Assembly: GCA_003222675.1 (NCBI GenBank)
Contig: QHWT01000074.1
Span: 1-64,000 of the forward strand
From: Acidobacteriota bacterium
GTDB lineage: Bacteria > Acidobacteriota > Vicinamibacteria > Vicinamibacterales > 2-12-FULL-66-21
Length of the DNA stretch: 64,000 nt
Direction: 5' to 3'
Part shown: one piece after another, positions 22,033 to 24,422 of the stretch
How the letters are laid out: each line of letters begins with the position of its first letter
Numbering within the stretch: the stretch's first letter is position 1
Notes under the pieces: model-generated
Told to the model about the DNA's origin: nothing
What the model saw: the letters and a program-made list of their open reading frames with translations, nothing else
The model's database searches: none
Position numbers and translations under genes: made by a program

Positions 22033-22039
22033 AGCAATA

Positions 22040-22130
22040 TTCAATATCCAACGTCCGACGCTCAATGTCCAATGCTCACGCGACCCTCTGTTTGAGCATT
22101 CAGCCTTGAACATTGAGCATTGACAAGTAC
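22040..22130. repeat. Degenerate inverted repeat (CAATGCTCA/TGAGCATTG)
   Basis: CAATATCCAACGTCCGACG, CAATGTCCAATGCTCA and the later TGAGCATTCAGCC and GAACATTGAGCATTG form imperfect complementary arms with a 7-8 bp period after the HEAT-cyclophilin stop. No gene is seen. Confidence 0.6.
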
Positions 22131-22156: not shown

Positions 22157-22187
22157 AAAAACGGGGGCGATTATCGCCCCCGTTTTT
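22157..22187 (-). terminator. Bidirectional intrinsic terminator
   Basis: A perfect 14-bp stem, AAAAACGGGGGCGA with its complement, closed by a TTA loop. A-tract and T-tract flank it, so it can stop transcription from both sides: the microprotein gene on the minus strand and the HEAT-cyclophilin gene on the plus strand. Confidence 0.9.
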
Positions 22188-22202: not shown

Positions 22203-22256
22203 TTACCGCTTCTTGCCGCCCTTTTTCTTCCCGCCTTTAGCCGTTTTCTTTGCCAT
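22203..22256 (-). CDS. 17-residue Lys/Gly-rich microprotein, copy B
   Basis: The 54-bp frame encodes MAKKTAKGGKKKGGKKR, identical to the product of the neighbouring gene at 22469-22522. Eight of the 17 codons differ between the copies and every difference is synonymous, which points to selection on the peptide. An in-frame TAA at 22263-22265, three codons before the ATG, excludes an N-terminal extension. A G-rich stretch (AAGGGGGGG) about 11 nt upstream may act as Shine-Dalgarno. The stop is followed 16 nt later by the strong terminator at 22157-22187. Nine basic residues and no acidic ones suggest nucleic-acid or ribosome binding; function unknown. Confidence 0.75.
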   Translation of the reverse strand: MAKKTAKGGKKKGGKKR

Positions 22257-22412
22257 TGCGCTTTATCCCCCCCTTCGTATGGGATTCGTCCGCGAAGAGC
22301 CTTCAACCGCACATCGCAGCGCCGCGGCCAACCGGCACGCCGGCGGTGCGCCTGCCGGCGCTCGTCGCTCCTTTGCAACTCCCGCACGCGATCGCGCGAG
22401 AGGTCTGCATCT

Positions 22413-22453
22413 AAAAAAATCGGGGGTGCGCAAGTTCCCTTGTGACACCCCCG
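22413..22453 (-). terminator. Intrinsic terminator of microprotein gene A
   Basis: On the minus strand CGGGGGTG (22453-22446) pairs with CACCCCCG (22428-22421) and is followed by ATTTTTTT. It lies 16 nt after the stop of copy A, making copy A a single-gene transcript. Confidence 0.88.
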
Positions 22454-22468
22454 GACCGGCGGCGGCCG

Positions 22469-22522
22469 TTAGCGCTTCTTCCCGCCCTTTTTCTTGCCGC
22501 CCTTCGCAGTCTTCTTCGCCAT
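22469..22522 (-). CDS. 17-residue Lys/Gly-rich microprotein, copy A
   Basis: It encodes MAKKTAKGGKKKGGKKR, the same peptide as 22203-22256 from a synonymously diverged sequence. Expression signals are complete: a TTGACA-16-CATAAT promoter at 22644-22617, a leader of about 85-90 nt, a textbook Shine-Dalgarno AAGGAGG at 22534-22528 five nt before the ATG, and an intrinsic terminator 16 nt after the stop. The peptide resembles basic tails of HU/H1-like proteins, but there is no folded domain. I know of no described family; far shorter than gene callers usually report. Confidence 0.85.
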   Translation of the reverse strand: MAKKTAKGGKKKGGKKR

Positions 22523-22545
22523 TAGTTCCTCCTTGGAACGTGGCA

Positions 22546-22600
22546 GCTCAGCTTGTTACCGGTGACCAGGGGTTACAACAGGTGGGCTGAGCGATCCACC
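22546..22600 (-). promoter_or_regulatory. Leader of microprotein gene A with alternative hairpins
   Basis: GCTCAGC (22546-22552) pairs perfectly with GCTGAGC (22586-22592), reinforced by TTGTTACC/GGTTACAA inside (7 of 8). A competing hairpin pairs GGTGG (22581-22585) with CCACC (22596-22600) and overlaps the first. The two folds are mutually exclusive, as in attenuators or RNA switches. Stems are short, so this is a candidate only. Confidence 0.4.
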
Positions 22601-22616
22601 CTCATACAAGATGTAG

Positions 22617-22644
22617 ATTATGGACGAGAAAGCTCCACTGTCAA
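22617..22644 (-). promoter_or_regulatory. Sigma-70-type promoter of microprotein gene A
   Basis: TTGACA (minus strand, 22644-22639), a 16-nt spacer and CATAAT (22622-22617). This is one of the closest matches to consensus in the window and suggests strong expression. Confidence 0.75.
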
Positions 22645-22726
22645 GCACAAACTGCTGCGAAAGTCAAAAAATCGCATCCTGAAAAAGGTGTCGGATCGAC
22701 TCGTGGAGAACTGTAGCGCGGGTGCG

Positions 22727-22879
22727 AACGAAGGGGACGGAGGAAACGGATCTCACAAACGAAGCAACGAAGAAAACGAAGCGCAACGGAGCCCAACATC
22801 GTGAAAATTTGATCTTCGTTCGTGTCCGTTGGCTTCGTTGCTTCGTTTGTGAGATCCGTTTCCTCCGTCCCCCTTCGTT
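22727..22879. repeat. Long inverted repeat, 46-bp arms
   Basis: The left arm 22727-22772 (AACGAAGGGGACGGAGG...) and right arm 22833-22879 are almost perfectly complementary, differing by a single extra C, with a 60-nt loop. Arms consist of AACGAAG-like 7-8 bp words. It ends at the stop codon of the TPR gene. No ORF in the region 22645-22877 is convincing. Confidence 0.88.
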
Positions 22880-24422
22880 ATCTCGTCGCGCGGAGGCGGT
22901 TCAATGCGCGATTCGCTGCGGCGCGCGTGTCGCTTCCTCCGCCGAACCACGTGCTTGCGATGCGGTAGTACGTCACCGCTTGATCGCGATGCGCCAGCCG
23001 CTCGTGCACGCGTGCCGCTTCGAGATAGGCGGCCGCCGCGATCGGCGCCGGACACTCGCGCGCGCCGCGGATCGCGTGCTCGAACTCGGCGAGCGCGGCC
23101 GCATCTTCCTTCCTCGACAGCAGCGCGCGGCCGTAGCGATACCGCGCGACGGGATCGTTCGGATCGAGCGTGAGGCTTCGCGCGAGCATCGTCTGCCCCC
23201 CCGCGATATCGGAGCGCTCCAGTTTGCGGAACCCTTCCAGCGACAGCCGGTACGCTTCGGCGCGAATGGGGTCCGGCGCCCGGCGCAGCCGCGCGGCGGC
23301 CCGTTCGCGCACGTTCTGCGCGTCGGGCATGGGCGCGGTGGAGACCGCCAGCCGGTAAGCGGCGATGGCGGCATCGCGATGCCCCAGCCGATCCTCCGCC
23401 TCTCCGAGTGCCAAGTAGGCCGCCGCCAGCGCCCCATGCGGCCGAGCCGGGCGCGCCTCGATGACGTCGCGGAGTTGTTCGAGCGCGTGATCGGTTTGAT
23501 ACAGGACGTCGAGCTGCCGCGCGACGCCCATGCGCGCCTGGATTTCCGCGAGCGCCGGCTCGCTGACGCGCTGCTCGCGCGCCGCGGCCAGCAGCGCGCG
23601 CCACGTATCGAGGCTGGCGCTCAGGTCGTGTCGATACGTGTCCTGCACCTCGGCGAGCTGCGCCACGAACAGCGGATTGCCAGGGTAGCGATCGTGCAGC
23701 GATTCGAGCAGCGCGACCGCCTGATCGATCCGATGCTCGTACCATAAATAGATGATCTGGAGCTGGTAGTCCGCTTCCCCCTGCAGCAGCCGCCCGTGCG
23801 CGCGCGCCCGCAGCATGCGCGCCAGTCCTTCGGTCCGATTGCCCCCGGGCAGCATGAGCAGGAAGCGAAGCACCTTCGCTGCGGCAGGCGCGACGTCGGC
23901 GTAATACTGATACATCCCCAAGCCGAAATACGCATCGTCCAGGTCGTCGTCGAGCTCGAGCGCGCGTTCGAGCGCCTGCTTGATGCGCTTGCCGTCGCGC
24001 GCGGCTGCCAGCTTCTCGTTTCGCAGGACGCGGAACTGGACGCGTGCAGCGTATGCGGCGCCGACGTAGAAGTGCGCCTCTGCGCTTTCGGGCGAGCGTG
24101 CCGCCCAGGCCTCGGTGGAGGCGATCGCCTTTTCGATCGAAGCGTTGAATTCCTCGTCCAGAGAGGGGCTCGCAGGATCCAGCTGGATGCGCCACCACGT
24201 GACTGTGGCGTCGAGCAGGTCGCACGCCTCGCGCGGCGCAGGGCCGCACGCGCGCTGCAATTCGGCGTCCGCCTGGTCAAACTGCGCATCGAGGATGTAA
24301 TCGTAGACGCGGACCAGCCTCTCGACGCCGGTGAGTTCCGCGGGCCGCGTGAAAACGACGCCGCCGGTGAGGCACAGGGCGCCGGCTGCGAGGCACGCCG
24401 CCTGGCGGTGCCGGCGCCGCAT
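22878..24422 (-). CDS. Membrane-anchored TPR protein
   Basis: A 514-residue helical-repeat protein. An N-terminal hydrophobic segment (residues 8-25) without a lipobox suggests a signal peptide or membrane anchor. The remainder consists of TPR-type helix pairs, e.g. FGLGMYQYYADVAPAAAK, AAYLALGEAEDRLGHRDAAIAAY and YRYGRALLSRKEDAAALAEFE near the C-terminus. It should be a protein-interaction scaffold in the envelope; no catalytic motif is seen. Start ATG overlaps the ddl stop as ATGA, so it is co-transcribed with ddl. Confidence 0.8.
   Translation of the reverse strand: MRRRHRQAACLAAGALCLTGGVVFTRPAELTGVERLVRVYDYILDAQFDQADAELQRACGPAPREACDLLDATVTWWRIQLDPASPSLDEEFNASIEKAIASTEAWAARSPESAEAHFYVGAAYAARVQFRVLRNEKLAAARDGKRIKQALERALELDDDLDDAYFGLGMYQYYADVAPAAAKVLRFLLMLPGGNRTEGLARMLRARAHGRLLQGEADYQLQIIYLWYEHRIDQAVALLESLHDRYPGNPLFVAQLAEVQDTYRHDLSASLDTWRALLAAAREQRVSEPALAEIQARMGVARQLDVLYQTDHALEQLRDVIEARPARPHGALAAAYLALGEAEDRLGHRDAAIAAYRLAVSTAPMPDAQNVRERAAARLRRAPDPIRAEAYRLSLEGFRKLERSDIAGGQTMLARSLTLDPNDPVARYRYGRALLSRKEDAAALAEFEHAIRGARECPAPIAAAAYLEAARVHERLAHRDQAVTYYRIASTWFGGGSDTRAAANRALNRLRATR

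What the first reader, a model, noticed from the sequence alone, without database searches (positions are those of the whole stretch)
22203..22522. Two synonymously diverged genes for one 17-residue Lys/Gly microprotein
Both 54-bp frames encode MAKKTAKGGKKKGGKKR. Eight codons differ and all eight changes are synonymous, while flanking DNA is unrelated. This is the signature of selection on the peptide. The upstream copy has a TTGACA-16-CATAAT promoter, AAGGAGG 5 nt before ATG, and each copy has its own intrinsic terminator; copy B has an in-frame stop just before its ATG. The peptide carries nine basic residues and no acid. I know of no described family; it is below the size limit of standard gene callers. 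A nucleoid- or ribosome-associated microprotein is the simplest hypothesis.
Basis: seen in the sequence. Interest (0 to 1): 0.88.

Follow-up and report, generated by a model that had tools for sequence, protein, structure and literature searches.

The report
Tandem polylysine microprotein genes, structured leader
A pair of overlooked genes, found throughout one order of soil and water bacteria (Vicinamibacterales, Acidobacteriota), each make a very small, strongly positively charged protein, most likely a nucleic-acid binder, from one promoter followed by an unusually conserved RNA leader.

Summary
On the minus strand, two 54-nt frames encode MAKKTAKGGKKKGGKKR and differ at eight codons, all synonymously. 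The tandem pair sits in the same place (convergent with a HEAT-cyclophilin gene) across the order Vicinamibacterales. A model of the promoter plus leader hits 113 of 162 genomes of the order, or 132 of 162 when combined with the copy-B ribosome site, and 0 of 354 other Acidobacteriota genomes. The 17-mer is a short member of a variable family: 95 distinct peptides of 14-65 aa, made almost only of K, A, G, R, T, V and P, nearly all MAKK...KKR, with no acidic residue. The composition resembles a histone-H1 tail. Selection is on the peptide (synonymous fraction 0.74 for A and 0.89 for B; neutral 0.22). In 16 of 62 tandem loci the two peptides are identical while their codons are not. In one genus this unit was also copied in front of ftsZ. 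Copy B has no promoter of its own and is probably read through copy A's terminator. Nucleic-acid binding is inferred from composition; translation and function are untested.

The parts
22469..22522 (-). Copy A (upstream): 17-codon gene, MAKKTAKGGKKKGGKKR, stop TAA
   Evidence: Translation; orthologues at the same offset (about 101 nt) from the leader in most loci; synonymous fraction 0.74 vs 0.22 neutral
22203..22256 (-). Copy B (downstream): 17-codon gene, same peptide, stop TAA
   Evidence: Translation; conserved at about +250-430 nt from the leader; synonymous fraction 0.89 vs 0.22 neutral
22617..22644 (-). Promoter TTGACA-16-CATAAT, in near-invariant context TTTGTGCTTGACA...TAATCTACATCT; the only sigma-70-like promoter found upstream of A or B
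   Evidence: alignment of 13 loci; 89 stretches with the promoter-start pattern in genome contigs, nearly all titled Acidobacteria
22523..22616 (-). Conserved 5' leader of copy A
   Evidence: Covariance model R1 built on it finds 113/162 genomes of the order and 0/354 other Acidobacteriota
22581..22600 (-). Helix P1: GGTGG (22600-22596) with CCACC (22585-22581)
   Evidence: 83-sequence alignment: 398/498 cells paired including a flanking pair, some two-sided changes, no shuffle of 500 reaches it, slid registers far worse
22546..22592 (-). Helix P3: GCTCAGC (22592-22586, in the P1 loop) with GCTGAGC (22552-22546); crosses P1, so a pseudoknot or an alternative pairing
   Evidence: 506/576 cells paired, 18 two-sided-change cells, 0/500 shuffles
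22573..22605 (-). Possible upstream ORF ATG AGG GTG GAT CGC TCA GCC CAC CTG TTG TAA, overlapping P1 and the 5' strand of P3
   Evidence: 84/106 leaders have a 9-10 codon frame here, but codons are not conserved synonymously and a minority stop early; translation is inference
22528..22534 (-). Ribosome binding site AAGGAGG of copy A
   Evidence: conserved as AGGAGG or similar
22413..22452 (-). Terminator 1, between A and B: GGGGGTG...CACCCCC then T7
   Evidence: Sequence; terminator-like structure after A in 57/63 loci vs 14 shuffled
22257..22412 (-). Leader of copy B: conserved GTGCC..GGC hairpin-like block (about 22340-22321) and an exceptional ribosome site GAAGGGGGGGAT (22276-22265)
   Evidence: 85-locus consensus cGtgccaGgcGGcag ... 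tGAAgGGGGGGATaa; relaxed ribosome-site pattern in 100/162 genomes of the order; exact pattern 19/396 in the phylum sample, all in the order
22157..22187 (-). Terminator 2, after B: AAAAACGGGGGCGATAATCGCCCCCGTTTTT
   Evidence: 81/85 loci vs 16 shuffled

Best explanation
This is an order-wide, vertically inherited locus that makes one kind of polycationic microprotein from two tandem genes. SHOWN by sequence: a single strong promoter, a conserved leader with two supported helices, gene A, a terminator, a second conserved leader with a G7 ribosome site, gene B and a second terminator. Selection holds the peptides to a K/A/G-rich, acid-free composition while codons drift. INFERRED: (1) both genes are transcribed from the one promoter; terminator 1 lets only part of the transcripts reach B, so the A:B dose is set by attenuation or leakiness. 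(2) The leader is a cis-acting regulator of how much peptide is made; its P3 helix pairs the possible upstream ORF with the sequence before the ribosome site, so ligand binding, upstream translation or the peptide itself could switch it. (3) The product works as a stand-alone histone-H1-tail-like polycation: disordered, binding and neutralising nucleic acid (DNA and/or RNA) by charge, with length and exact order of little importance, which explains 14-65 aa length drift at constant composition.
For: Coding selection and composition: 95 distinct peptides, no D/E, median K+R 0.53, 91/95 end KKR or KKK (ORFs were picked as K-rich MAK frames, so composition is partly conditioned, but such a frame starts about 90-130 nt after the leader start in most loci). 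Distribution. Same site: the HEAT-cyclophilin gene is found in 55/58 loci, downstream and convergent in 54; the other three contigs end within 470 bp. One promoter for both: no promoter-like site between A and B; lineages that lost A keep the promoter and leader ahead of B, and two f11 genomes keep leader, a terminator and B without A. Leader is cis-acting and portable: in one genus (f15 g33) a second copy lies directly between ftsA and ftsZ with no microprotein gene. Leader structure. H1-like resemblance: HC2 profile hits below cut-off for longer members; K/A/P-rich H1-like tails bind DNA and vary in length in Hc2 and AlgP (PMC2848022, PMC9239181).
Against: No expression, translation or binding data. 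HC2 matches are low-complexity and below gathering scores; the 17-mer itself is too short to scan. Gly-rich 14-17-mers (MAKKGGKKKGGKKR) are far shorter than the H1-like proteins described in the papers read here. About 30/162 genomes of the order gave neither leader nor B site, some of them nearly complete (f9 genera), so it is not strictly universal or not found there. Read-through of terminator 1 is not shown.
Confidence: 0.5

Rival explanations
1. The peptide is a lineage-specific ribosomal or ribosome-associated protein, like the tiny basic bL37 or uL41, buried in rRNA, and the leader is an autoregulatory mimic of its rRNA site.
For: Size, charge, strong promoter, and structured leader with conserved loop fit; a 24-aa ribosomal protein confined to Actinobacteria was found only by cryo-EM (PMC5876184). 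Neighbours include a tRNA-modification gene (tgt) in many loci.
Against: Ribosomal proteins rarely vary from 14 to 65 aa by repeat drift at constant composition; there are no fixed aromatic, His or Cys contact residues; two differing copies are present in many genomes; part of the order seems to lack it.
Confidence: 0.22
2. The RNA is the functional product (a structured small RNA or riboswitch-like leader), and the short frames are there mainly to be translated, stabilising or timing the RNA.
For: The leader is more conserved than the peptide; it has two supported helices and a possible upstream ORF; two f11 genomes keep leader plus terminator without gene A.
Against: Strong coding selection in both copies, peptide identity between copies with different codons, and the leader copied ahead of ftsZ acts like a cis element, not a free RNA.
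Confidence: 0.12
3. Identical A and B peptides result only from gene conversion or recent duplication, so the synonymous pattern says little.
For: Copies lie about 270 bp apart, which favours conversion; 11 different peptides are shared exactly by A and B within a genome.
Against: Codon mismatch at identical residues is 0.38 for A-B in the same genome, as high as A-B between genomes (0.365) and far above A-A (0.158) or B-B (0.219); each copy keeps its own leader and terminator. Old, short conversion tracts followed by synonymous drift cannot be excluded.
Confidence: 0.15
4. Leader peptide (attenuator) controlling a downstream gene by lysine or arginine supply.
For: Short K-rich frames followed by terminators resemble amino-acid leader peptides.
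Against: No gene follows on the same strand; the next gene is convergent in 54/58 loci; both copies are followed by terminators.
Confidence: 0.02

Closest known systems
Downstream-peptide motif of cyanobacteria (glutamine-type riboswitch candidate; Rfam RF01704 from memory)
   Same: A conserved structured 5' leader, with the leader more conserved than the frame, upstream of short frames (17-100 aa) that evolve by synonymous change and in-frame indels (PMC2864571)
   Different: Different phylum, no Rfam match even at permissive E-values, different sequence, includes the promoter, no known ligand, tandem genes
Histone H1-like proteins Hc2 (Chlamydia), BpH1 (Bordetella), AlgP C-terminal domain
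   Same: K/A-rich, acid-poor, length-variable by repeats; sub-threshold HC2 hits for two of the longer members
   Different: 14-65 aa against 165-237 aa for Hc2 (PMC2848022) and a 195-aa tail on a predicted helical domain in AlgP (PMC9239181); Gly-rich members; two tandem genes with a conserved leader
Tiny ribosomal proteins bL37 (24 aa) and uL41
   Same: Unannotated, tiny, lineage-restricted (PMC5876184)
   Different: No sequence link tested or seen; those sit in defined rRNA pockets, here length and order drift

Membership tests
Histone H1-like HC2 (PF07382 / NF038052) | Profile match above the curated cut-off | tested here: not met
   Best 21.5 bits vs cut-off 40 (Pfam) and 19.4 vs 135 (NCBIfam)
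Histone H1-like HC2 (PF07382 / NF038052) | Lysine-rich pentamer repeats over 72-144 residues | tested here: not met
   Longest member 65 aa, window member 17 aa; repeat region size from PMC2848022
Histone H1-like HC2 (PF07382 / NF038052) | DNA/RNA binding | not testable with these tools
   Inferred from charge only
Downstream-peptide riboswitch motif | Covariance-model match in Rfam | tested here: not met
   No match in window or in relative loci
Downstream-peptide riboswitch motif | Structured leader directly ahead of a short conserved frame | tested here: met
   P1 and P3 helices and short frames; architecture only
Ribosomal protein (bL37/uL41 type) | Bound in the ribosome | not testable with these tools
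   No structure of a ribosome from this order was found in the searches made
Amino-acid leader peptide | Same-strand regulated gene downstream | tested here: not met
   Convergent HEAT-cyclophilin gene downstream

The most novel reading that the evidence does not exclude
A new regulatory RNA class (promoter-proximal, pseudoknot-like leader containing a tiny upstream ORF) controls a new kind of free-standing polycationic microprotein pair whose two products are kept matched by selection at the peptide level. The same leader was recruited to ftsZ, which would link polycation dose to cell division.
Probability: 0.3. Interest if true: 0.85.

Novelty: new variant of a known kind. Interest (0 to 1): 0.7.

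Why it matters
It is an order-wide gene pair of a poorly studied group that falls below gene-caller size limits, and its leader matches nothing in Rfam 15. If the peptide binds nucleic acid, it would be among the smallest gene-encoded chromatin-like polycations, a natural test of how little sequence a disordered basic protein needs. The leader offers a compact candidate regulatory RNA with an independent second use at ftsZ, so its signal can be tested on two unrelated genes.

Tried and rejected
Rfam: only chance miRNA/snoRNA matches, mostly on a long hairpin at 22714-22892, unrelated to the finding. Leader-peptide attenuation rejected on gene order. Paper searches for the peptide and for Vicinamibacterales or Luteitalea small proteins gave nothing on this locus. 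A phylum-wide pattern for short K-rich frames of any order was badly written: it missed all known members, so its zero is uninformative. My first alignment used the wrong part of the loci and was replaced by A2; the L109 row is also a wrong stretch. The first P1 register tried was wrong and was replaced by the register. A first tblastn with the cyclophilin gene used the wrong frame and was redone. Structure prediction was not attempted: a 17-aa low-complexity peptide would give no information.

Full report
WHAT IS THERE. On the minus strand of the window two 54-nt frames, A (22522-22469) and B (22256-22203), each encode MAKKTAKGGKKKGGKKR. They differ at eight third positions, all synonymous; the neutral synonymous fraction for these codons is 0.226, so the chance of 8/8 is about 7e-6. 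The pattern has no other match in the 7.16-Mb genome. A is preceded by TTGACA-16-CATAAT and AAGGAGG, B by GAAGGGGGGGAT; a hairpin and T-tract follow each.

IT IS A CONSERVED LOCUS. Ten of 120 relatives carry near-identical frames, several as the same tandem pair. The surprise was upstream: from the -35 to the ribosome site of A the DNA is strongly conserved across genera, in long near-invariant blocks. A covariance model of the -10 plus leader (R1) hits 113 of 162 genomes of the order. In a phylum sample it hits 36 of 42 genomes of the order and 0 of 354 others. Adding the B ribosome-site pattern (100/162) brings the total to 132/162 by comparing the two lists. An exact promoter-start pattern found 89 stretches in named genomes, nearly all titled Acidobacteria; the few other titles look like mislabelled metagenome bins. 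The order is Vicinamibacterales, judged from those titles and from two complete genomes whose size fits Luteitalea (memory, not tested). The locus keeps its place: the HEAT-cyclophilin gene is found in 55 of 58 loci, downstream and convergent in 54, and the other three contigs end too soon. D-Ala-D-Ala ligase lies upstream in most.

THE PEPTIDE FAMILY. Downstream of the leader most genomes have MAKK...KKR, but of 14 to 65 aa. The 95 distinct peptides use K, A, G, R, M, T, V, P, S and three stray C/N, never D or E; the frames were selected as MAK-starting and K-rich, so this is partly conditioned. Synonymous changes make up 0.74 (A) and 0.89 (B) of single-nucleotide codon differences, neutral 0.22. 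The 17-mer is thus a short, Gly-rich member of an H1-tail-like family. HC2 profiles match two of the longer ones below threshold.

THE TWO COPIES TRACK EACH OTHER. Of 62 tandem loci, 16 have A and B identical residue for residue, involving 11 different peptides, against 1.0 expected on shuffling B among loci. Within families the match is also closer than permuted (edit-distance p 0.0012 and below 0.001; identity p 0.007 and below 0.001). Their codons have not been homogenised: 92/241 codons differ, as much as between A and B of different genomes. Selection for matched peptides, or old short gene conversion followed by synonymous drift, could do this; shared ancestry makes the permutation p-values optimistic.

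ONE PROMOTER, TWO TERMINATORS. No promoter-like site lies between A and B. In families that lost A the promoter and leader sit ahead of B; in one of these families A persists as a degenerate remnant without its ATG (G043/G060). Two f11 genomes keep leader and a terminator but no A frame, then B. So B is probably reached by read-through and terminator 1 sets the dose. Terminator-like structures follow A in 57/63 and B in 81/85 loci, shuffled 14 and 16.

THE LEADER. On 83 leaders aligned by sequence alone, helix P1 (GGTGG/CCACC) and helix P3 (GCTCAGC in the P1 loop with GCTGAGC before the ribosome site) are kept in 80% and 88% of cells, with two-sided changes. No shuffle reaches either, and slid registers pair far worse. 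P1 and P3 cross, so they form a pseudoknot or alternate. Folding energies of single leaders are unremarkable (z about -1.3), so the support is comparative. An ATG (or GTG) 9-10 codons before a stop overlaps both helices in 84/106 leaders (the search required [AG]TG at that place). Its codons do not evolve synonymously and a minority stop early, so its translation is only a possibility.

A SECOND USE OF THE LEADER. In the genus f15 g33 the model gives two hits in several genomes. In the two examined (G044, G075) the second copy lies between ftsA and ftsZ and ends just before the ftsZ start (FtsA and FtsZ identified by Pfam for G044). This argues that the promoter-leader is a portable cis element and that its output suits a growth-linked gene.

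HOW IT MOST LIKELY WORKS. Shown: coding selection, composition, architecture, leader conservation, distribution. Inferred: one transcript, leader-controlled expression, read-through to B, and a disordered polycation that binds nucleic acid by charge. The nucleoid reading is preferred over the ribosome because length drifts freely while composition does not; a ribosomal role remains possible.

COMPARISON. Architecture is closest to the Downstream-peptide motif of cyanobacteria (PMC2864571), but no Rfam match exists. Composition is closest to H1-like Hc2 and AlgP tails (PMC2848022, PMC9239181), without passing family cut-offs. In size it recalls bL37 (PMC5876184). It is filed as a new variant: works like an H1-type polycation, not a member of HC2.

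Noticed in passing
L228:1462-1600 (G044:C2:92992-93087) and L229 (G075:C11:14154-14249): A copy of the promoter and leader sits directly between ftsA and ftsZ in genus f15 g33; no microprotein gene there. Weak second hits in G061 and G068 were not read.
   Followed up: partly
window 22714-22892: Long near-perfect inverted repeat (GGATCTCACAAACGAAGCAACGAAG...) just upstream of the promoter region; gives spurious plant-miRNA matches in Rfam.
   Followed up: no
window 22035-22125: Repeats of AATGTCCAATGCTCA / AATGCTCAATGTTCA type between the cyclophilin gene and terminator 2.
   Followed up: no
L083, second ORF (offset 291): Copy B of G038 is 52 aa and ends KKGCKAC, the only peptide seen with cysteines.
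   Followed up: no
L110, L111 (G060, G043), about 95-110 nt after the leader start: Copy A decayed: the frame's ATG reads ACG, while leader and copy B remain.
   Followed up: partly
L230 (G056:C41): A 13-aa frame MAKKKASKRGKGC behind AAGGGGGGTGAT outside the usual locus, on a 3.8-kb contig; origin unclear.
   Followed up: no
alignment: A second conserved TTTTTGAC motif about 25-30 nt upstream of the -35 in every aligned locus; possible regulator site or second -35.
   Followed up: no
L023, L027 (G142:C51, G142:C68): Two near-identical copies of the tandem pair on different contigs of one genome bin; duplication or strain mixture.
   Followed up: no
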